Below the pieces are notes generated by a model. The model saw only the letters and a list, made by a program, of their open reading frames with translations. It ran no database searches and was not told where the DNA came from. Made by a program: the position numbers and the translations under genes. This document shows, in pieces, positions 1,834 to 10,130 of a stretch of 10,130 bases of DNA. The stretch is from DATKZS01 sp035527835 [NCBI: bacterium] (lineage in GTDB: Bacteria > RBG-13-61-14), in the NCBI GenBank assembly GCA_035527835.1, contig DATKZS010000212.1:1-10130 (forward strand), read 5' to 3'. Within the stretch, counting starts at the first letter, position 1, and every line of letters starts with the position of its first letter.

Positions 1834-3030
1834 ATGATCAACGAGGTATTAAACAGTCTCTGCGCCCTGCCGCACCGTTACTCGACCAGCGCGAACGAAC
1901 ACCGGGCCGCCGAGTACCTCCGGCACAAGCTCGACGACCTGGAGATTGACGCCCAGCTGGTTCCGTTCGTGGCGCCCACGACGTTTTCCTGGATCTATTT
2001 AATTTTATATCTGGGTTTTTTGATTTCGGTGGTTACGGGCATCCAGCATCCGGTGGTGGCGCTGGCCATCGCGCTATTTTTCGCGGTGCTTTTCTACGGG
2101 GAGCAGACCACGCGGTTCTCGCCGCTATCGCAGTGGGTTCCGGAAGGACTGTCGCACAACGTGATCGGCAAGATTCCCGGCCGCAACAACCCCAGGAACA
2201 CCCTGATCCTCTGCGCCCACTATGACACCTCCAAGACCGCGCTCATCTTCCATCCCGGCTTCGTGGCCGGGCTGCGCCGCGCCTTTTTCATCTCGCTCAT
2301 CATGATCGGGCTCATCATCGTCGGCAACGCCGCCCGGATCGCGGTCACCGGGCAGGCGCTCAGGATCATCAACTGGGCCATGGCGGTCCCGGGCGTTTAC
2401 ATGGGTGTCATGTGCCTGGGCATGATCGAGCGGGAGGCGCGGGGGGTGCCGGTGAACGGCGCGGCGGACAACGCCTCCGGGGTGGCAACGGTCATGGAGC
2501 TCGCCAAGCGGGTCAAGGAAAAGGGCGGCCTGTCCGGCTGGGACGTCACGGTGCTGCTGACCGGGAGCGAGGAAGTGGGGCTGGCCGGCATGTCGCATTT
2601 TATGAGGGAGAACGGAAAGCGCCTGGACCCGGCGGCCACGGCCTTCATCAACTTTGACAACATGGGCGGCGGCAAGCTGACGGTGGTGCGGGAGGAGGGG
2701 ATGCTGAAGGGCCTGCCGGCGGACCCGGAGCTGCTCCGGACCGCGGAGGGACTGATAGCTTCCGACCCGCGGTTCGCTGATATTGACATCCGGGCCTTCC
2801 GGGCGCTGACGCTGGACTCGCTGGTTCCGAACGCGCGGGGCCACCGGGTGCTGAGCCTGATGGGGCTCAACAAGGCCGGCGTGCCTACGCCCTGGCACTG
2901 GCACAACGACACCCTGGAGCACCTGGACAAGGACATGGTCCGTCTGGCGGCCGAATTCGGCTGGGAGCTCGTGAACCGGCTGGAAACGGGCGGGAACGCG
3001 GAAGATGGGCCCCGCGAAAAACCTCTATAA
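1834..3030 (+). CDS. Membrane-anchored M28-family zinc metallopeptidase
   Basis: This 398-residue protein carries the complete di-zinc ligand set of peptidase family M28: H129 and D131 in CAHYDTS, D212 in AADNASG, the catalytic E246 and ligand E247 in TGSEEVG, D275 in NFDNMGG, and H357 in HWHNDT. The family contains aminopeptidases and related exopeptidases; the substrate here is not predictable. Two hydrophobic segments (about 51-68 and 72-88) precede the catalytic core. Two more (about 149-169 and 179-197) sit inside it, between the first ligand motif HxD and the next ligand D212. These ligands are 83 residues apart, compared with about 20 in classical soluble members, so the enzyme appears to be integrated into the membrane. 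A TGA lies two codons upstream in frame, so 1834 is the earliest possible start. There is no SD-like sequence before it. The gene ends at TAA 3028-3030, and the same frame continues as the possible small ORF downstream. Confidence 0.9.
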   Translation: MINEVLNSLCALPHRYSTSANEHRAAEYLRHKLDDLEIDAQLVPFVAPTTFSWIYLILYLGFLISVVTGIQHPVVALAIALFFAVLFYGEQTTRFSPLSQWVPEGLSHNVIGKIPGRNNPRNTLILCAHYDTSKTALIFHPGFVAGLRRAFFISLIMIGLIIVGNAARIAVTGQALRIINWAMAVPGVYMGVMCLGMIEREARGVPVNGAADNASGVATVMELAKRVKEKGGLSGWDVTVLLTGSEEVGLAGMSHFMRENGKRLDPAATAFINFDNMGGGKLTVVREEGMLKGLPADPELLRTAEGLIASDPRFADIDIRAFRALTLDSLVPNARGHRVLSLMGLNKAGVPTPWHWHNDTLEHLDKDMVRLAAEFGWELVNRLETGGNAEDGPREKPL

Positions 3031-3230: not shown

Positions 3231-4649
3231 TTACGGCTTTTTGTCCCACCGATGGTGGAATGACCCGGGGCGGTCAATGCGCTCGAAGGTATGGGCGCCG
3301 AAGAGGTCGCGCTGGGCCGAGATGAGGTTGGCGGGGAGCCGCGCGGTGCGGATGGCCTCGAAGTAGGCGAGCGCGGACATGAGGGCGGGGCAGGGCACGC
3401 CGAAGGCGATGGCGATGCGGATCAAGTTGCCCCAGCGGTCGTACTTCTTGTCAATCGTCTCGATGATGTCGTGATAGAGGAGCAGGCTCGGGAGCTCGGG
3501 GGCCTCGGTATAGGCGCGCCGGATCACGTCGAGGATGGCGGAGCGGATGATGCATCCTCCCTTCCAGATGCGGGCGAGCTCGGTGAGGTCGAGGCCGTAG
3601 CCGTATTCGCGGGACGCGGCGCTGAGCAGCGCCATGCCCTGGGCGTAGAGGGAGAGGCGGGCGGAGTAAAGGGCGTCGCCGGCGGCGCGGACCAGGTACG
3701 AGGTGGAGGTGATGGGAATCTGGGCGGGCTTGACCACGTTGATGATTTTTTCCGCGTCCTTCCGAAGCTCCTTTTTCGCGGAGAGGCTGCGGGCCTCGAC
3801 GGCGGCGGTGATGGTGGGGACGGCCTCGCCGAGCTCGAGCGCGTTCACCGAGGTCCAGCGGCCGGTGCCTTTTTGCCCGGCCCGGTCCAGAATGAGGTCG
3901 AGAAGCGGCTTTTGGGTGTCCGGGTCTTTTTCGCGGAAGATGCGCGCGCTGATCTCGACGAGGTAGGATGCCAGCTCACCCTGGTTGAATTCGTCGAAGG
4001 CGCGGGCCAGGGCCTCGTTATCGAGCGATCCCACCCGGCGGAGAATGTGATAGACCTCGGCGATGAGCTGCATGTCGCCGTATTCGAGGCCGTTGTGGAC
4101 CATTTTGACGTAATGGCCGGCGCCGCGCGGACCCGCCAGAGTGACGCACGGCCCGTCGCCGGTCCTGGCCGCGATGGCCTCGAACACGTGCCGCACGCGC
4201 TGATATGCCTCCGGCGTTCCCCCGGGCATGATGCTCGGGCCCTTGAGCGCGCCTTCCTCGCCGCCGGAAACGCCCACGCCCATGTAGGCGATGCCTTTTT
4301 CCGTAAGCTCCTTGCCGCGGCGCTCGGTGTCCTGGAAATGAGAGTTGCCCAGATCAATAATCAGGTCGCCCTCGTCGAGCAGCGGCAGGAGTCCCGCGAT
4401 GGTCTCATCCACCGCGGGGCCGGCCTTGACCATGATCATCACGGTGCGGGGCTTGGCGAGGAGCGCCACGAATTGCGCGAGCGTCTCTCCCAGCTCCACG
4501 GGCAGGCCCTTCGCGCTCTCCCGCATGAACTTGCGAGCGGTCTCCACGGTGCGGTTGTGCACGGCGACCGGGATGCCGCGCCCGGCCATGTTGAGGACCA
4601 GGTTCTGGCCCATGACCGCTAGTCCGATCAGTCCGAGCTCACTTGGCAC
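3231..4649 (-). CDS. gnd: 6-phosphogluconate dehydrogenase, decarboxylating
   Basis: This enzyme oxidatively decarboxylates 6-phosphogluconate to ribulose 5-phosphate and CO2 in the cytosolic pentose phosphate pathway. The 472 residues match the usual length of the long, dimeric class (about 470). The N-terminal Rossmann fold has LGLIGLAVMGQN (5-16). It is followed by HNRT (31-34), the kind of NR-T motif that binds the 2'-phosphate of NADP, so NADP is the likelier cofactor. The substrate site has SGG (128-130), KMVHNGLEY with K182, N186 and E189, AGQKGTGRW with K260, and EARSLS with R287. The C-terminal tail has RDLFGAHTF with R447 and H453, which closes the neighbouring subunit's active site. 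The start is GTG at 4649, chosen because AGGGAGG (4656-4662) lies six bases upstream and the Rossmann motif follows at the normal distance. It is the last gene of the minus-strand cluster, after the larA-like gene and gntK, whose kinase would produce its substrate. Confidence 0.97.
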   Translation of the reverse strand: MPSELGLIGLAVMGQNLVLNMAGRGIPVAVHNRTVETARKFMRESAKGLPVELGETLAQFVALLAKPRTVMIMVKAGPAVDETIAGLLPLLDEGDLIIDLGNSHFQDTERRGKELTEKGIAYMGVGVSGGEEGALKGPSIMPGGTPEAYQRVRHVFEAIAARTGDGPCVTLAGPRGAGHYVKMVHNGLEYGDMQLIAEVYHILRRVGSLDNEALARAFDEFNQGELASYLVEISARIFREKDPDTQKPLLDLILDRAGQKGTGRWTSVNALELGEAVPTITAAVEARSLSAKKELRKDAEKIINVVKPAQIPITSTSYLVRAAGDALYSARLSLYAQGMALLSAASREYGYGLDLTELARIWKGGCIIRSAILDVIRRAYTEAPELPSLLLYHDIIETIDKKYDRWGNLIRIAIAFGVPCPALMSALAYFEAIRTARLPANLISAQRDLFGAHTFERIDRPGSFHHRWDKKP

Positions 4650-4685
4650 TGTTTGCCTCCCTGCTCAGAAAATAGTTGGACACAT

Positions 4686-4743
4686 GGTAGGACAGGCATT
4701 CCTGCCTGTCCAGCGGCGGACAGACAAGAATGTCTGTCCTACC
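4686..4743. repeat. REP-like composite palindrome between larA-like gene and gnd
   Basis: This 58-bp element has outer arms GGTAGGAC (4686-4693) and GTCCTACC (4736-4743). It contains two nested hairpins: GACAGGCA-TTCC-TGCCTGTC (4691-4710), and GACAGACA-AGAA-TGTCTGTC (4719-4738), with the linker CAGCGGCG between them. Paired short palindromes with matching outer ends are typical of REP/BIME-type elements mobilised in trans by REP-associated tyrosine transposases. From memory, similar 'GTAGGACAGGCATTCCTGCC' repeats are scattered through many uncultured-phylum genomes; this was not verified here. It fills most of the gap between the two genes, and its right end supplies the TAG stop codon of the larA-like gene. 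No transposase is in the window. Confidence 0.85.
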
Positions 4744-5986
4744 GCCTGATACTGGCACCCTCCATGTTTTCCTTGAGTCTATAAAGTATCTCGCCGGCGC
4801 GGGGCACGACCAGGACGCCTTCGGACTCGCGGCCCTCGAACGCGGTCAGGTTTAATGACGTTGGATCGCGGTAGCCTATCGAGAGCCGCTCGCAGCGCTC
4901 GCGGGGAATGGCGGTGGCGAGCGTGACCTTGATCCGCGGCCGCTCCACGCCGTTCTCGAACGCGCCCATGCCTTTCAAGTGCGTGGAGTGCGCGAGCACG
5001 CCGCCCGGGTAGCGCTGAAACCGGTCCCACTGCTGAACAAAGTAGTCGCGCACGTGGTAGCCGATCTCGTCCAGGACCTTGCCGTGGGTGTAAGACACCT
5101 CCTTGATGTGCGGCGCGTAAATGATCACCTCGCCGCCGTCGGCCACCGCCGGCTCCATCTTGTACATGCCCTTGGCGCCGGTCCAGATGTCGTCGTACAT
5201 CTCGGGCATCACCGCGACCACGAGCTTAAACGGCCGCTCCACGTAGCGAATGTGCGTCCGGGCGGAGAGCTCCGCGGCCTGGCGCCAGGCCTCCCGCACC
5301 GGGCCCGCGAACAGGCCCTCGAGGCCGTCAACCCCCTCCACCACGGAGCAGACGCCGGTCACCGGCCGGTCCACCATGTCGGCGGCCCGCTCGATCACGG
5401 CGCGCACCGGGGTCTCGGCGCGGCCGATGATGCCGTAGTTGGTGATGAGCGCGCCCAGCCAGTGCGTGAAGTTGATGATCTCCGGCCCGGCGATTCCGGG
5501 GAAGAGGTACTTGTTGCCGCCGGAAAAGCCGGCGACCTCGTGGGGGAACACCGGGCCGTAGATGATGATGTGGTCGTAGTCGCCGATCAATCGGTTCAAC
5601 GCCACCGGCACGTCATCATGCATGAGCCCGTTGCTCAGCTCCTCCATCTCCCCGCCGCTGATCGTGCCGATGCGCGTAAAGGTGTCGGGCCGCTCCCAGT
5701 GGTGGTTGTGGATCGCGATGCCCGCGTATTTGCCGGCGCGGTCCTTATCGGTGATTCCGAAGAGCTTGTTTTGCGCGGCCTCGGTCAGGGGCTGGTGCGT
5801 GCCGAGCGCGATCAGGAAGTCGAGCTTCTTCGCGCGCGGCAGGATGAGCTCGGCCAGGAGCCGGAAGATCATGGGCATGGGCCCGCTTCTGGTCGCGTCG
5901 GGCGTGATCGCGAGCACGCGCCTGCCGTCCAGGTCCACGCGCCCGAGACCCTGCTCCATGATGGTTCTGGCTTCTTTTTCTTTCAT
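4739..5986 (-). CDS. LarA-superfamily nickel-pincer racemase/epimerase (candidate aldonate 2-epimerase)
   Basis: The 415 residues match the LarA family (DUF2088 N-terminal domain plus C-terminal domain), whose members move a hydride at C2 of 2-hydroxyacids using a nickel-pincer nucleotide. Visible signatures are PDATRSGP with D30 and R33, ALGTHQPLTE with H64, NHHWERP (94-100), FPHEVAGFSGGNKYLFPGIAG (147-167) with H149 and K159 (the lysine that binds the cofactor in L. plantarum LarA), and INFTHW with H175 (a nickel ligand position). It begins about 40 residues later than classical LarA, lacking the N-terminal strand segment. An in-frame TAA lies three codons before the ATG, so it cannot extend. 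I recall a LarA-like subfamily with this short start. There is no clear SD. It lies between gluconokinase and gnd, which favours an aldonate such as gluconate/mannonate over lactate as substrate (inference). No larB, larC or larE cofactor genes are in the window. The stop codon comes from the adjacent repeat. Confidence 0.88.
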   Translation of the reverse strand: MKEKEARTIMEQGLGRVDLDGRRVLAITPDATRSGPMPMIFRLLAELILPRAKKLDFLIALGTHQPLTEAAQNKLFGITDKDRAGKYAGIAIHNHHWERPDTFTRIGTISGGEMEELSNGLMHDDVPVALNRLIGDYDHIIIYGPVFPHEVAGFSGGNKYLFPGIAGPEIINFTHWLGALITNYGIIGRAETPVRAVIERAADMVDRPVTGVCSVVEGVDGLEGLFAGPVREAWRQAAELSARTHIRYVERPFKLVVAVMPEMYDDIWTGAKGMYKMEPAVADGGEVIIYAPHIKEVSYTHGKVLDEIGYHVRDYFVQQWDRFQRYPGGVLAHSTHLKGMGAFENGVERPRIKVTLATAIPRERCERLSIGYRDPTSLNLTAFEGRESEGVLVVPRAGEILYRLKENMEGASIRR

Positions 5987-5994
5987 ATTTTTTT

Positions 5995-6076
5995 AGCCGC
6001 AGATGAACGCAGATTAACGCAGATTAATTAAAATTATTCCATAATCATCTGCGTTAATCTGCGTTCATCTGCGGCT
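5995..6076. repeat. 82-bp palindrome with perfect 30-bp arms and 10-bp internal units, between gntK and larA-like gene
   Basis: Positions 5995-6024 and 6047-6076 are perfect 30-bp inverted repeats around a 22-bp AT-rich loop. Each arm contains tandem 10-bp units of the type CGCAGATKAA (5998-6007, 6008-6017, 6018-6027 on the left), so the palindrome is itself built from short tandem repeats. The element spans the whole 67-bp gap and extends 23 bp into the gntK reading frame, where it encodes the last residues (about PQMNAD) and the TAA stop. In the other direction its left edge contains an in-frame TAA just before the larA-like ATG. From memory, related 'GCAGATGAACGCAGATTAACGCAGAT' repeats occur in many environmental genomes; this was not checked. 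Confidence 0.95.
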
Positions 6077-7595
6077 CCTTTCTTTGCAACTCGTCCCATC
6101 GCTCGAAGTCCTGCTCCAGATGCCGGTACAACTGCTTGAACATCTCGAACCGCTCGCGATAGAACGCGGTCTTTTCAAGGTCCGGCTCGAACACGCGCTC
6201 GACCTCGATCATCTTGGCGGCCGCGCTTAAATCCTTGACCGCGCCCGCGGCCTTCATTCCTAGTATAGCGGCGCCCAGCGCGGAGTTCTCGCGGGCGCGG
6301 GTGAGCGACACGGCCGTGCCCAGCATGTCCGCCAGGAGCTGCACCCACGCGGCGGAGCGCGTGAAGCCGCCGCTGGCCCGGACCTCGCTCACGCCGCCGG
6401 GCGAGCCGGCAAGCAGCTCGTGGAGCAGGGCCATGCTCATGCAGATGCCTTCGAGCACGGCGCGGGCCAAGTGGGCCTGGCCGTGGTGGGGGCCGAGCCC
6501 GAAAAAGACGCCGCGGGCCTTCGGGTCCCAGTAAGGCGTGCGCTCGCCGTGAAGATAAGGGAGGAAGATGAGACCCTGGGCGCCGGGCCCCGCGGTCTCG
6601 GCGAGCGCGATGATGCGCTCGTAAGGCTCGGCTCCCTGGGCCATGGCGCGGTCGCGGAGGTCGGAGAGGACCTGGTCGCGCAGCCAGCGGAGAATGATGC
6701 CTCCGCTGTTGATGGCGCCGCCGGCGTACCAGAACTGGTCGGCGAGGTAATAGAGCCAGACTTTGGCCGCGGGGTCGAGCCAGGGGGAGGCGAGGACCTT
6801 GCGCATGGCGCCGGAGGTCCCGATGGTGGCGGCGGCCTGTCCGGGCAGTATGGCGCCGGAGCCCAAGTTGGCGAGTCCGCCGTCGCCGGCGCCGGGGACC
6901 ACGGGGATTCCCGCGGGCAGGCCGAGCGCGGCGGCGGGCCCGGGCAGCAGTCCGCCGGCGGCCCGGTCCGGGTCGCAAAGTCGTGGCAGGCGCTCGGCCC
7001 CGATGCCGATGGCGTCCAAGGTGGGCGCGTCCCATTCCAGGCGGCGGGCGTCGAGCAGGCCGTTCGAGCTCGCGTGAGAGCGGTCTGAGACCCATTGCCC
7101 GGTGAGCCGATGGATGACCGCGTCCTTGATGGACACGAACTTCGCGGCGCTCTGGAAAACCTCGGGCGCGTTTTCCTTAAGCCAGGAAATTTTCGCGGGG
7201 TAATACAGGGCGGTGGCGGGGCAGCCGGTGCGCTGGAAAATGTCGGCGCCGTCACGGCGGGCAAGCTCCTTGGCCTGCGCGGCGGCCCTGCCGTCGGCCC
7301 AGGTGAACATGCGGGTGAGCGGCCGGCCGTCCTTGTCCACCGCCATCATGCCGTGCATGGCGGCGGAAAAGGACACGGCGCGCAGTCGCGAAGTCTCGAT
7401 GCCGGCAAGGGCCTCACGCACGGCCGCGGCCATGCACTCCCAGACTTCCTCCGGGTCCTGCTCCTGCCGGTCCGGCCCCGGCTGATGCACGCGGCACCCG
7501 GCGCTGCCCGTTGCCATCTCCCGGGCGCGCTCATCCGCCGCCACGGCCTTGACCGCCGACGTGCCCAGATCAATTCCCAGAAACAGGCCACTCAA
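6054..7595 (-). CDS. gntK: Gluconokinase, FGGY family
   Basis: This enzyme phosphorylates D-gluconate with ATP to 6-phosphogluconate, the substrate of the gnd enzyme in the same cluster. The 513 residues match the length of the FGGY gluconokinase of Bacillus subtilis as I remember it, and many motifs agree. These are the phosphate-1 motif LGIDLGTSAVKAV (6-18), FSAAMHGM (76-83), FTWADGRA (97-104), PAKISWL (133-139), GAGDGGLANLG with catalytic D238, the nucleotide-binding TIGTSGAMR (257-265), GGAINSGGIILRW (292-304), and later PYLHGERTPYWDPKARG and ASGGFTRSAAW. This fits gluconokinase better than xylulokinase or glycerol kinase. The start is TTG at 7595. GAGGTG (7602-7607) sits six bases upstream, and the ATG just upstream runs into a stop after five codons. 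The final residues PQMNAD and the stop codon are encoded by the palindromic repeat at 5995-6076, so the natural C-terminus was altered by its insertion. Confidence 0.93.
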   Translation of the reverse strand: MSGLFLGIDLGTSAVKAVAADERAREMATGSAGCRVHQPGPDRQEQDPEEVWECMAAAVREALAGIETSRLRAVSFSAAMHGMMAVDKDGRPLTRMFTWADGRAAAQAKELARRDGADIFQRTGCPATALYYPAKISWLKENAPEVFQSAAKFVSIKDAVIHRLTGQWVSDRSHASSNGLLDARRLEWDAPTLDAIGIGAERLPRLCDPDRAAGGLLPGPAAALGLPAGIPVVPGAGDGGLANLGSGAILPGQAAATIGTSGAMRKVLASPWLDPAAKVWLYYLADQFWYAGGAINSGGIILRWLRDQVLSDLRDRAMAQGAEPYERIIALAETAGPGAQGLIFLPYLHGERTPYWDPKARGVFFGLGPHHGQAHLARAVLEGICMSMALLHELLAGSPGGVSEVRASGGFTRSAAWVQLLADMLGTAVSLTRARENSALGAAILGMKAAGAVKDLSAAAKMIEVERVFEPDLEKTAFYRERFEMFKQLYRHLEQDFERWDELQRKEPQMNAD

Positions 7596-7656
7596 TATTC
7601 ACACCTCATGTGGAAAACCATCACCTCTGGTTCAGCCCTCGCTCCCCTCTTCACAT

Positions 7657-7742
7657 TATATTTCGCACAGAGACACAGAGAACACAGAGTATAATATATT
7701 TTTAATTTTTCTCCGTGCCTCCGTGTCTCCGTGCGAGATATA
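7657..7742. repeat. Imperfect palindrome of 8-bp units between nadE and gntK
   Basis: The left arm 7657-7689 and right arm 7711-7742 are inverted copies around a 21-bp AT-rich loop. The right arm contains three 8-bp units, CTCCGTGC, CTCCGTGT and CTCCGTGC (7711-7734). The left arm has the matching units of CACAGAG type, with one extra A. Arm differences are mostly A in one arm against the C-containing complement in the other. In minus-strand (operon-sense) RNA these pair as G-U, while in plus-strand RNA they would be A-C mismatches. The outer left edge contains ATTATA (7655-7660), an exact TATAAT on the minus strand facing gntK. The element fills half of the 164-bp nadE-gntK gap; the remainder (7596-7656) holds only the gntK leader and SD. 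Confidence 0.85.
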
Positions 7743-7759
7743 AAAACTCCAATGCCCCT

Positions 7760-9469
7760 TCACCGCGGCCGGTAGCGGTTGGTGATGGGCAGGCGGCGGT
7801 CGCGGCCAAAGGCCTTGGGCGTGATCTTGACGCCGGGGGGCGCCTGCCGGCGCTTGTACTCGTTGCGGTCCACCAGCGCGATGACCTCGCGCACGGTCCG
7901 GGCGCTCAGGCCCGCGGCCACGATCTGATCGAGCGCGCGGTCCTCCTCGACGTACTCTTCCAGGATCGGGTCGAGCACCGGGTAGGGCGGCAGCGAGTCC
8001 TCGTCCTTCTGGCCGGGCCTAAGCTCGGCGGTGGGCGGACGCGCGATCACGCTCTCCGGGATCAGCTCGCGGCCCGCCCCGCGGTTCACGTGGCGCGCCA
8101 GCTCCCAGACCAGGGTCTTGGGCACGTCCTTGATCACGGCGAAGCCGCCGGCCATGTCGCCGTAGAGGGTGCAGTAGCCCACGGCCGTTTCGCTCTTGTT
8201 GCCGGTGGTGAGTACGAGCCATCCGAAGCGGTTGGATAATGCCATCAGGATGTTGCCGCGGATGCGGGCCTGCAGGTTCTCGGCCTCGACCCCGGGCCCG
8301 CCCTCTCCCAGCGCTTGTTTGAGCTCAGCCATGAACTTAATGAACACGTCCTTGATCGGCACGGTGATCAGTCTGATCCCCAGGTTTTTGGCGAGCAGCT
8401 CCGCGTCCGAGAACGTCTCGCCGGACGTGTATTGGGAGGGCATGGTGACGCCGATGACGTTGTCGCGGCCGAGCGCCTTTACCGCGAGAGCCGCCACCAG
8501 CGACGAGTCCACGCCCCCGGAAAGGCCGATCACCACCTTGGCGAAGCCGTTCTTGGTGACGTAGTCCCCGGTCCCGGTGACCAGGGCCAGATAGACCTCC
8601 TCCAGCTTGGACAGCTCCCGGCACATGGACGGCGCCACCAGCCCACGGCCGTCCGCCGCCGGCGCGGGAAGTATGATCATGCTCTTTTTCTTGCCGGCGG
8701 ATTTGGCGGCGGCGCGGGTGCCCGCGGGGACTTCGAGGTCGGTGACGAGCAGGTCCTCTTCAAAGCGGCGGGCCATGGCGATGATCCGGCCGGAAGGCAG
8801 GGCCACCAGGCTGCCGCCGTCGAACACCAGCTCGTCCTGCGCTCCGGCCAGGTTGTTGTAGCAGACCGCGGCGCCGGTGCGGCGGGCGAAGCCGGTGACG
8901 ATTTTGCGGCGCAGGTCGAGCTTGCCGGCGTCAAAGGGCGAGCCGGAGATGTTGAGCACCACTCCGGCCCGGCGGGCGCGGGCCCATTTCTCGACCCGGC
9001 CGCCCTCGATCCAGATGTCCTCGCAAATCGTGAGCATCACCCGCGCGCCGCGGAGCGCGAACAGGGCACACTCGGTCCCCGCCGTGAAATAGCGCTTCTC
9101 GTCGAACACGCCGTAGTTGGGCAGCTCGACCTTGCGGTAGATGGCGGCGATCTTCCCGGCGCTGACCACGGCCGCGGCGTTGAACACGTCACGGCCGGCG
9201 AGCTCGGGAAAGCCGATGACAACGGTGATGCCGGCGACGCGGGGCACGATGTTGTTGAGCGCCTTTTTGCAGTCCTGAAGAAAGGCCGGCTTGAGCAGCA
9301 GGTCCTCCGGCGGGTAGCCGCAGAGACAGAGCTCGGGGACCATGACCAGGTCGGCCCGCGCCGCCCGCGCTTTTTCCACGGCCCGGACGATCTTGTCCGC
9401 GTTCCTCTCAAGGTCTCCCACCGTCGGGTTGATCTGGCCCATGGCTATTCTTAAAACCGTTCCCGCCAT
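7760..9469 (-). CDS. nadE: Glutamine-dependent NAD+ synthetase
   Basis: This enzyme makes NAD+ from nicotinic acid adenine dinucleotide, ATP and glutamine, the last step of NAD synthesis. The 569 residues contain two domains. The N-terminal nitrilase-type glutaminase has the triad E46 (VPELC), K113 (YRKVELPNYGVFDE) and C149 (TICEDIW). The C-terminal ATP-pyrophosphatase synthetase has the P-loop LSGGVDSS (316-323) and the later conserved TTGNKSETAVGYCTLYGDMAGG and YPVLDPILEEY. It ends with the family's typical KRRQAPPGVKITPKAFGRDRR tail, so it is complete. A start at 9568 is possible but unlikely: the extra 33 residues are low-complexity, overlap the promoter, and begin next to the upstream terminator. 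ATG 9469 is preceded by AGGAAGAGGG and gives the family's normal N-terminus (LRIAMGQINPTVGD). It is the first gene of the minus-strand series, and its own promoter is visible. Confidence 0.96.
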   Translation of the reverse strand: MAGTVLRIAMGQINPTVGDLERNADKIVRAVEKARAARADLVMVPELCLCGYPPEDLLLKPAFLQDCKKALNNIVPRVAGITVVIGFPELAGRDVFNAAAVVSAGKIAAIYRKVELPNYGVFDEKRYFTAGTECALFALRGARVMLTICEDIWIEGGRVEKWARARRAGVVLNISGSPFDAGKLDLRRKIVTGFARRTGAAVCYNNLAGAQDELVFDGGSLVALPSGRIIAMARRFEEDLLVTDLEVPAGTRAAAKSAGKKKSMIILPAPAADGRGLVAPSMCRELSKLEEVYLALVTGTGDYVTKNGFAKVVIGLSGGVDSSLVAALAVKALGRDNVIGVTMPSQYTSGETFSDAELLAKNLGIRLITVPIKDVFIKFMAELKQALGEGGPGVEAENLQARIRGNILMALSNRFGWLVLTTGNKSETAVGYCTLYGDMAGGFAVIKDVPKTLVWELARHVNRGAGRELIPESVIARPPTAELRPGQKDEDSLPPYPVLDPILEEYVEEDRALDQIVAAGLSARTVREVIALVDRNEYKRRQAPPGVKITPKAFGRDRRLPITNRYRPR

Positions 9470-9493
9470 TCCCTCTTCCTTCCGATCAGGTGC

Positions 9494-9522
9494 ATTATGA
9501 AGAAGATCGGTGGTCAATTCAA
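9494..9522 (-). promoter_or_regulatory. sigma70-type promoter of nadE
   Basis: Reading the minus strand, TTGAAT (9522-9517) and CATAAT (9499-9494) are separated by exactly 17 nt, matching four and five of six consensus bases. Transcription would start near 9487, leaving an 18-nt leader that holds the SD before ATG 9469. The promoter lies downstream of the hairpin terminator, as expected for an independent unit. Confidence 0.6.
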
Positions 9523-9576
9523 GCTGCGGGGCCGCGGGGAATCCGGGCTGAGGGGCGGCGGGCGCCATTAAATTGA

Positions 9577-9628: not shown

Positions 9629-10130
9629 TCATGGCGGGTCAACCGCGTTCAGGGTGAATGCCGGCAACAGGTCAACGTCATTCATCCATCGGCCTTTTTC
9701 TTCGGCGAGCAAGAGCCCGCAATGGGGGATTTGAGCGTTCACGATGATGGAGCCGGGGCCGGTGATGGAGAGGACGATGAAGGCGTGGCCGCCGTCAAGT
9801 TTGCCGTTGACGCCGGACACGTCGAAGCGGTTGCCCGCCGGGCCTCCGCTGTAACTGCCGTCGCCGCCGAGCAGCACGGCCGTGCCGGTGGAGCCGTCGT
9901 CAATGGAGAAGACCACGGAGAAGCCGCCCTGGTACAGCACGTTGATGAGGTTGGAGTTGCGCACCCGGACCGTCACGTGAGTGGTGCTACCCACCAGCAC
10001 GTCTCCCGCCGGCTCGTAAACCTTTTCCAGATCCGCGGCCCGGCTGTTGACCGTGCCCACCGGCATGCTCAGGATGAAGCCCCGGATGGTGACCAGGTCG
10101 CTGCCCAGGATGTAGCCGTCGGCGTCGAGG
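9629..10130 (-). CDS. C-terminal part of a protein with a dockerin-type calcium-binding module (5' end beyond window)
   Basis: The frame is open to the right edge, giving 166 residues up to TGA at 9631-9629. The first visible residues, LDADGYILGSDLVTIRGFIL, fit the dockerin type I / F-hand pattern. Aspartates occupy loop positions 3, 5 and 12, glycine position 6 and isoleucine position 8, followed by L and an amphipathic helix of the 'LxxIRxFIL' type. Loop position 1 is off the edge. About 145 residues follow, rich in V, T, S, G and N (for example HVTVRVRNSN, FSVVFSIDDGS, AFIVLSITGPGSIIVNAQI), suggesting a beta-sandwich, with no helix or anchor at the C-terminus. It is probably an extracellular or cell-surface protein, but the signal peptide and main domains would be upstream. 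The internal ATG at 10066 is not a credible start because the loop is just before it. It is a separate transcription unit from nadE. Confidence 0.7.
   Translation of the reverse strand, partial: LDADGYILGSDLVTIRGFILSMPVGTVNSRAADLEKVYEPAGDVLVGSTTHVTVRVRNSNLINVLYQGGFSVVFSIDDGSTGTAVLLGGDGSYSGGPAGNRFDVSGVNGKLDGGHAFIVLSITGPGSIIVNAQIPHCGLLLAEEKGRWMNDVDLLPAFTLNAVDPP

What the first reader, a model, noticed from the sequence alone, without database searches (positions are those of the whole stretch)
3231..7595. Candidate nickel-dependent aldonate route: GntK - LarA-like epimerase - Gnd in one cluster
Seen: three same-strand genes encoding an FGGY gluconokinase, a LarA-superfamily protein with the cofactor lysine and histidine ligands kept, and 6-phosphogluconate dehydrogenase. 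Known: the LarA superfamily contains not only lactate racemase but other hydroxyacid racemases and a D-gluconate 2-epimerase (GntE). Inference: the middle gene interconverts D-mannonate and D-gluconate (or another C2 epimer pair), so that the kinase and Gnd send it into the pentose phosphate pathway. This would bypass mannonate dehydratase/KDG and the Entner-Doudoroff route. The genes are in pathway order, with the kinase first and the dehydrogenase last.
Basis: partly seen in the sequence, partly recalled or inferred. Interest (0 to 1): 0.72.

Follow-up and report, generated by a model that had tools for sequence, protein, structure and literature searches.

The report
Nickel-cofactor sugar-acid epimerase gene cluster
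Three neighbouring genes very probably let a bacterium flip the sugar acid mannonate into gluconate with a nickel-cofactor enzyme and burn it through the pentose phosphate pathway, a route already known from Thermotoga and here met in a separate branch of the enzyme family.

Summary
In detail: on the minus strand lie an FGGY kinase (6054-7595), a LarA-superfamily protein (4739-5986) and 6-phosphogluconate dehydrogenase (3231-4649). The middle protein is not a lactate racemase. Its best solved relative is Thermotoga GntE2 (4nar), shown in print to interconvert D-mannonate and D-gluconate; it keeps the seven cofactor/catalytic residues and the published E-V-A-H GntE signature. It falls in a clade of 80 tree rows, apart from GntE2 and from a LarAH18 tier. 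Relatives have a D-mannonate-oxidoreductase-like gene nearby in 47 of 79 loci, Gnd in 18, but an FGGY kinase in only 1. Genomes with this clade plus mannonate oxidoreductase mostly lack mannonate dehydratase UxuA (3 of 34 have it, against 6 of 8 controls), which supports the proposed bypass. The idea is not new: Rodionova 2012 proposed it (as cited by later papers) and Desguin 2020 assayed the enzyme. The window's own genome is not held, so larB/C/E could not be tested there; of 45 relatives, 35 have all three over cut-off and 8 have none. Verdict: new member of a known kind.

The parts
6054..7595 (-). FGGY carbohydrate kinase, probable gluconokinase (513 aa, TTG start with GAGGTG upstream)
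   Evidence: TIGR01314 gntK_FGGY 418 bits (cut-off 649 not reached), best PDB match 3gbt 'Gluconate kinase' 9e-80
4739..5986 (-). LarA-superfamily, GntE-type D-mannonate/D-gluconate 2-epimerase (415 aa); NPN dependence inferred
   Evidence: PF09861; 4nar/GntE2 5e-64, 33-36% identity; seven cofactor/catalytic residues and E-V-A-H signature; own clade in tree
3231..4649 (-). gnd, decarboxylating NADP-type 6-phosphogluconate dehydrogenase (472 aa, GTG start, GGGAGG upstream)
   Evidence: NF006765 611 bits over cut-off 413; PF00393
5995..6076 (.). perfect 30-nt inverted repeat spanning the kinase-LarA gap (5987-6053) and the last codons of the kinase; -59 kcal/mol for the 96-nt fragment 5985-6080
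   Evidence: the repeat finder I1, ViennaRNA in own script, sequence
4686..4743 (.). 26-nt inverted repeat (88%) in the LarA-gnd gap (4650-4738), reaching over the LarA stop codon; -52 kcal/mol for the 96-nt fragment 4650-4745
   Evidence: the repeat finder I4, sequence
7663..7736 (.). hairpin-forming stretch in the NadE-kinase gap (7596-7759); -60 kcal/mol for the whole 164-nt gap
   Evidence: fold, sequence; not in the inverted-repeat list

Best explanation
The middle gene encodes a nickel-pincer-nucleotide (NPN) dependent 2-epimerase of the GntE kind. It takes the hydride from C2 of D-mannonate onto NPN, with H64 and H149 as the two acid/bases, and gives it back on the other face, making D-gluconate. 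The FGGY kinase then makes 6-phosphogluconate and Gnd oxidatively decarboxylates it to ribulose 5-phosphate. In relatives the mannonate would come from hexuronates through uronate isomerase and D-mannonate oxidoreductase, and the epimerase would take the place of mannonate dehydratase UxuA. Shown here: gene identities, residues, clade, relatives' neighbourhoods, the UxuA pattern. From the literature: the D-mannonate/D-gluconate reaction for T. maritima GntE2. Inferred: substrate, cofactor use and flux in this organism.
For: Best solved relative is 4nar, which is GntE2, assayed on D-mannonate (PMC7583248). The published usual GntE residues E,V,A,H (PMC11770544) are met: E150, V151, A332, H333; 77 of 79 clade rows share them, 0 of 10 outgroup LarA rows do. 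Within 5.5 kb of LarA in 79 clade loci: D-mannonate-oxidoreductase-like gene 47 (42 on the same strand), Gnd 18 (16), UxaE 11 (8), UxaC 10 (10). In L096 the order is oxidoreductase, LarA, FGGY kinase, Gnd, IolO-type epimerase, UxaE. Genome-wide, mannonate oxidoreductase over cut-off in 34 of 45 clade genomes against 8 of 35 controls, strong Gnd (316 bits or more) 38 of 45 against 13 of 35. Among genomes with mannonate oxidoreductase, UxuA is in 3 of 34 with the clade and 6 of 8 without, Fisher p 0.0004; in Verrucomicrobiota alone 2 of 12 against 5 of 5, p 0.003. No p-value is corrected for shared descent.
Against: No uronate gene in the window. Exact trio rare: FGGY kinase in 1 of 79 loci. Hairpins at the gene borders, and a promoter-like match at 4712-4684 in the LarA-gnd gap, may mean separate transcripts. 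29 of 79 clade loci show none of the seven marker genes. Seven clade genomes with mannonate oxidoreductase and no UxuA have no strong Gnd. Eight of 45 clade genomes have no larB, larC or larE over cut-off, among them G193, whose cluster (L096) is the most similar in content. All three together are not significantly enriched over controls (35 of 45 against 22 of 35, p 0.21). LarAH18-tier rows share E-V-A-H (18 of 21), so it does not single out GntE. The UxuA contrast rests on eight controls, five of them Verrucomicrobiota. Only PF03786 was used for mannonate dehydratase; the enolase-superfamily type was not tested.
Confidence: 0.74

Rival explanations
1. Phosphorylated route: the kinase first makes 6-phosphomannonate and the LarA-like protein is a 6-phosphomannonate 2-epimerase that delivers 6-phosphogluconate to Gnd. 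Gene order kinase, LarA, Gnd would then be the true pathway order.
For: L. suebicus extracts phosphorylate mannonate before epimerising it, the genes are unidentified, and a homologue of the T. maritima gene was seen in its proteome (PMC6978723, passages). Gene order in the window.
Against: GntE2 works on free D-mannonate. In L096 and L009 the epimerase gene comes before the kinase gene, and 78 of 79 clade loci have no FGGY kinase in the flanks held.
Confidence: 0.12
2. The enzyme epimerises another hexonate, aldarate or uronate-derived pair, and gluconate/mannonate is not its natural substrate.
For: High KM of GntE1 and GntE2 for mannonate in print (120 and 17 mM). In Verrucomicrobiota locus L160 the gene is followed by KDPG aldolase, UxuA and a sugar kinase, with no Gnd nearby. 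5-keto-L-gluconate epimerase gene in L096.
Against: A D-mannonate-oxidoreductase-like gene near LarA in 47 of 79 loci and the UxuA complementarity point to mannonate itself.
Confidence: 0.18
3. The three genes are chance neighbours in separate transcription units and do not form one route.
For: Strong hairpins at all three gene borders (two of them listed); a promoter-like match in the LarA-gnd gap; the trio is rare in relatives; NadE upstream is unrelated.
Against: LarA and Gnd lie close together in 18 of 79 loci, in three phyla, and the same three families meet in L096 and in Thermotogota L009.
Confidence: 0.1

Closest known systems
GntE2 (LarAH20), T. maritima, PDB 4nar, with gntK and gnd in the UxaR-regulated aldH-pelB-gnd-uxaRED-gntEK operon (PMC7583248, PMC3750489, passages)
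   Same: LarA superfamily, seven cofactor/catalytic residues, loop E and A-H pair, kinase and Gnd in the same cluster
   Different: 33-36% identity; separate clade; loop E-V instead of E-S; no uronate genes seen in the window; T. maritima also has UxuA
LarAH18 group, NCBIfam NF052594 'putative hexonate epimerase'
   Same: E-V-A-H in 18 of 21 tier rows; Gnd and mannonate-oxidoreductase-like neighbours in 11 and 9 of 23 tier loci
   Different: Window scores 186 bits against a cut-off of 500; 24-29% identity; separate clade with support 100. The tier is named after one member that was scored, L205, 611 bits
GntE1 (LarAH19), C. glutamicum
   Same: Published D-gluconate 2-epimerase of the same superfamily
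L. suebicus mannonate kinase / 6-phosphomannonate 2-epimerase route (PMC6978723, passages)
   Same: Hexuronate carbon enters 6-phosphogluconate and Gnd
   Different: Phosphorylation precedes epimerisation; genes unidentified

Membership tests
LarA superfamily (NPN-dependent 2-hydroxyacid racemases/epimerases) | Lar_N domain and residues equivalent to LarA D72, R75, H108, H174, K184, H200, K298 | tested here: met
   PF09861 73.5 bits over 23.3; all seven residues aligned
LarA superfamily (NPN-dependent 2-hydroxyacid racemases/epimerases) | larB, larC, larE in the same genome | not testable with these tools
   Own genome not held. Relatives: all three over cut-off in 35 of 45, none in 8, some in 2
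GntE (D-gluconate 2-epimerase) | Usually E, V, A, H at LarA positions 175, 176, 358, 359 | tested here: met
   E150, V151, A332, H333 by sequence alignment; signature from PMC11770544; also in 18 of 21 LarAH18-tier rows
GntE (D-gluconate 2-epimerase) | Same phylogenetic group as an assayed GntE | tested here: inconclusive
   Nearest assayed protein in the tree's set is GntE2, but the window lies in its own clade of 80 rows (SH-aLRT 95, quick tree); GntE1 and the eukaryotic LarAH15 were not included
GntE (D-gluconate 2-epimerase) | Measured D-mannonate/D-gluconate epimerisation | not testable with these tools
   Needs enzyme assay
LarAH18 (NF052594) | Score over the curated cut-off of 500 bits | tested here: not met
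   Window 186 bits; clade relatives L004 190 and L160 184; a true member, L205, 611
Lactate racemase (NF033504) | Score over the curated cut-off of 460 bits | tested here: not met
   70 bits
FGGY gluconokinase (TIGR01314) | Score over the curated cut-off of 648.55 bits | tested here: not met
   417.7 bits, the best of all models; the kinases beside LarA in L009 and L096 score 372 and 217
6-phosphogluconate dehydrogenase | Score over the NF006765 cut-off of 413 bits | tested here: met
   611 bits

The most novel reading that the evidence does not exclude
The kinase acts first on mannonate and the LarA-like protein is an NPN-dependent epimerase of 6-phosphosugar acids, so that the gene order is the pathway order. 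It would be a phosphorylated branch of the LarA superfamily and would give a gene for the unassigned 6-phosphomannonate 2-epimerase seen in L. suebicus extracts.
Probability: 0.1. Interest if true: 0.65.

Novelty: new member of a known kind. Interest (0 to 1): 0.36.

Why it matters
The route itself is known; in the papers read here its gene-cluster evidence comes from Thermotoga. The window leads to a branch of LarA proteins found in Chloroflexota, Planctomycetota and Verrucomicrobiota. Three members scored here pass no NCBIfam cut-off, and none of the passages read here reports an assay of it. Its genomic pattern suggests that it replaces mannonate dehydratase in hexuronate breakdown, sending uronic-acid carbon into the pentose phosphate pathway with nickel chemistry. 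That can be tested with one protein and two substrates.

Tried and rejected
Lactate or malate racemase: rejected on model scores and tree. LarAH18 member: rejected on cut-off and tree. larB/C/E as a discriminating sign: not useful, since they are common in controls too. UxuA depletion overall: no difference, 9 of 45 against 9 of 35; only the joint pattern with mannonate oxidoreductase differs, and in Chloroflexota alone that joint pattern is not significant (0 of 15 against 1 of 3, p 0.17). Strong Gnd does not differ in Verrucomicrobiota alone (14 of 15 against 10 of 11). Terminators: the scan found 3 against 4.5 expected, none on the minus strand; promoter-like sites were 4 against 0.9 expected, three of them on the minus strand, one in the LarA-gnd gap. 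Exact 17- and 18-base pieces of two of the hairpins gave no match in the 224 loci then held. The taxon of the window was not determined. No structure was predicted; I judged it unnecessary given the identity to 4nar.

Rows left out and limits: the draws gave 37 of 251, 26 of 246 and 18 of 194 genomes with a clade match; G229 and G080 (partial) and G356, G327, G315, G314 (flanks not fetched) are absent from the 79 neighbourhood loci, which add G001, G005, G006 and G008. The 45 clade genomes are 15 per phylum out of those 79, and the 35 controls come from the genomes listed first without a match; in both I preferred larger genomes, so neither is a random draw. Contig ends cut many flanks. Neighbour thresholds were my own (phmmer bits: mannonate oxidoreductase 190, Gnd 250, UxaC 250, UxaE 250, FGGY kinase 190, HAD 150, PFP 300). 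In the oxidoreductase search only 26 candidates were scored in most genomes, so a missing oxidoreductase there is less sure. Whether the genomes are complete is not told by the tool.
Full report
OBSERVATION. The three ORFs are open at the given coordinates on the minus strand. Gnd passes its curated cut-offs. The kinase is an FGGY kinase whose best NCBIfam model is gluconokinase TIGR01314, 418 bits, short of the cut-off of 649; its best solved match is a 'Gluconate kinase', 3gbt. The middle protein carries the Lar_N domain. Gaps are 67 bases (kinase to LarA) and 89 bases (LarA to gnd) by the coordinates. Upstream is NAD synthetase NadE (7760-9568); downstream and convergent is an M28 peptidase (1834-3030, plus strand). 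No UxaC, UxaE or mannonate-oxidoreductase-like ORF was found in the window and no UxuA domain among the seven ORFs scanned.

WHAT THE MIDDLE PROTEIN IS. Its closest solved relative is 4nar, E 5e-64, 36% identity in a pair alignment and 33% in the large one. PMC7583248 (passages, section 8) identifies 4NAR as T. maritima GntE2 and reports D-mannonate to D-gluconate epimerisation, KM 17 mM and kcat 197 per second. The residues that paper names for cofactor and catalysis are all present in the window: D30, R33, H64, H149, K159, H175, K272. PMC11770544 (passages) gives E, V, A, H as the usual GntE residues at LarA positions 175, 176, 358, 359; the window has E150, V151, A332, H333. My placing of the last two rests on sequence alignment with A351-H352 of 4nar; the 2020 paper had named N348 for the first of them, which aligns with window G329.

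CLADE. One scan of genome contigs gave nine loci. Samples of Chloroflexota (251 genomes), Planctomycetota (246), Verrucomicrobiota (194, plus 96 in an overlapping draw) and Thermotogota (41) gave more. In the first three phyla scores fall in tiers, and 37 of 251, 26 of 246 and 18 of 194 genomes have a top-tier match. A quick maximum-likelihood tree of 130 rows puts the window with the 79 top-tier rows, SH-aLRT 95 for that set of 80 (57 for the 79 without the window), apart from the Thermotogota/GntE2 rows (99), a second tier (100), a small Chloroflexota tier (100) and the LarA outgroup (100). One member of the second tier, L205, scores 611 on the LarAH18 model, over its cut-off, while the window, L004 and L160 score 184-190. 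So the window's clade is neither LarAH18 nor the Thermotogota group, and no NCBIfam model claims the three members scored. GntE1 (LarAH19) was not in the tree. Identity of the window to its clade is 46-60%, to Thermotogota rows 29-36%, to the small Chloroflexota tier 36-38%, to LarAH18-tier rows 24-29%, to outgroup rows 19-24%. Of the 79 clade rows 77 keep all seven residues; L152 and L129 do not.

NEIGHBOURHOODS. Within 5.5 kb of LarA in 79 clade loci: D-mannonate-oxidoreductase-like gene 47 (42 on the same strand), Gnd 18 (16), HAD protein 13 (12), UxaE 11 (8), UxaC 10 (10), PFP 8 (7), FGGY kinase 1 (1); 29 loci show none of these. The queries were the window's Gnd and kinase, L005's oxidoreductase and isomerase, which pass NF006132 and NF002794, L004's HAD and PFP, and L009's UxaE. 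Typical orders are UxaC, oxidoreductase, (HAD), LarA, Gnd, (PFP) in Chloroflexota L004 and L005, and oxidoreductase, LarA, FGGY kinase, Gnd, 5-keto-L-gluconate epimerase IolO, UxaE in L096. For comparison, 23 LarAH18-tier loci have Gnd in 11 and the oxidoreductase in 9, with no UxaC or UxaE, and 5 loci of the small Chloroflexota tier have none of the seven. So the link to Gnd is shared with the LarAH18 tier, while among the three sets counted the uronate isomerase and epimerase genes were seen only in the window's clade; Thermotogota L009 also has UxaE.

GENOME-WIDE TESTS. In 45 clade genomes and 35 genomes of the same phyla without a match: mannonate oxidoreductase over cut-off 34 of 45 against 8 of 35 (p 4e-6); strong Gnd 38 of 45 against 13 of 35 (p 2e-5), though not different in Verrucomicrobiota alone (14 of 15 against 10 of 11); UxuA 9 of 45 against 9 of 35 (no difference); larB, larC and larE all over cut-off 35 of 45 against 22 of 35 (p 0.21). 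Among genomes with mannonate oxidoreductase, UxuA is present in 3 of 34 with the clade and 6 of 8 without (p 0.0004); in Verrucomicrobiota alone 2 of 12 against 5 of 5 (p 0.003), in Chloroflexota 0 of 15 against 1 of 3 (p 0.17); the 12 Planctomycetota controls have no oxidoreductase over cut-off. These p-values ignore shared descent. The pattern is what one expects if the LarA-like protein replaces UxuA as the exit from mannonate. Against it: seven such genomes lack a strong Gnd, T. maritima has both GntE and UxuA, and only the PF03786 type of mannonate dehydratase was sought.

MECHANISM. Two-histidine proton-coupled hydride transfer on NPN, as described for LarA (PMC11770544, passages), is inferred from the conserved residues. 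The route D-mannonate, D-gluconate, 6-phosphogluconate, ribulose 5-phosphate is the one proposed for T. maritima by Rodionova 2012; that paper is not held and is known here through PMC7583248 and PMC6978723 (passages). It would fit the L. suebicus scheme, in which mannonate is phosphorylated before epimerisation (PMC6978723, passages); I keep that as the most novel reading.

LIMITS. Strong hairpins lie at the three gene borders (two are in the repeat list). The one between kinase and LarA reaches into the last codons of the kinase, and the one after LarA covers its stop codon. A promoter-like match lies in the LarA-gnd gap. A single transcript is therefore not assured. The source organism is unknown and its genome not held. 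Eight of 45 clade genomes have no larB, larC or larE over cut-off although their LarA keeps the residues; G625 is one of them and its LarA contig is 4.15 Mb of a genome given as 4.2 Mb.

NOVELTY. Searches of the paper library on NPN with gluconate epimerase, on UxaE with mannonate, on larB/C/E with genomes, on gluconate epimerase with mannonate, on mannonate with Chloroflexi, and on GntE listed no paper whose title or abstract start treats this clade. That is not proof of absence: PMC11770544 has a tree of 1212 LarA homologues with predicted GntE functions and names Planctomycetota as rich in them, so the clade may already be in it; figures and supplements were not seen. I file it as a new member of a known kind.

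Noticed in passing
G005, G193, G201, G020, G672, G684, G563, G625 (loci L005, L096, L097, L103, L160, L161, L162, L164): Eight of 45 genomes with a window-type LarA have no larB, larC or larE over cut-off, although LarA keeps the cofactor and catalytic residues. G625's LarA contig is 4.15 Mb of about 4.2 Mb. Cofactor source unknown.
   Followed up: partly
L160:6953-11300 (also L161): In a Verrucomicrobiota genome the window-type LarA gene is followed by KDPG aldolase, UxuA and a sugar kinase whose best models, below cut-off, are KDG kinases, with no Gnd nearby; the epimerase may there feed gluconate into mannonate and KDG, the reverse direction. L161 looks alike; its UxuA was scored.
   Followed up: partly
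L004:8868-9758, L006:4395-5309 and 11 further clade loci: A HAD-family protein of unknown role lies near LarA in 13 of 79 clade loci, in 6 of them with a PPi-phosphofructokinase-like gene and in none with an FGGY kinase; which enzyme phosphorylates gluconate there is open.
   Followed up: no
window 5995-6076, 4686-4743, 7663-7736: Each of the three gene borders holds a different long hairpin, like dispersed palindromic elements; the first supplies the last codons of the kinase. Exact short pieces of two of them matched none of 224 loci.
   Followed up: partly
L130-L134 (Chloroflexota): A separate LarA-like clade (36-38% identity to the window) keeps the seven residues and loop E, but its other three pocket sites are G or V, S or A, and L or G; none of the seven marker genes nearby in 5 loci. 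Substrate unknown.
   Followed up: no
window 9629-10129: Open-ended ORF whose first residues look dockerin-like by eye; no Pfam or NCBIfam match.
   Followed up: no
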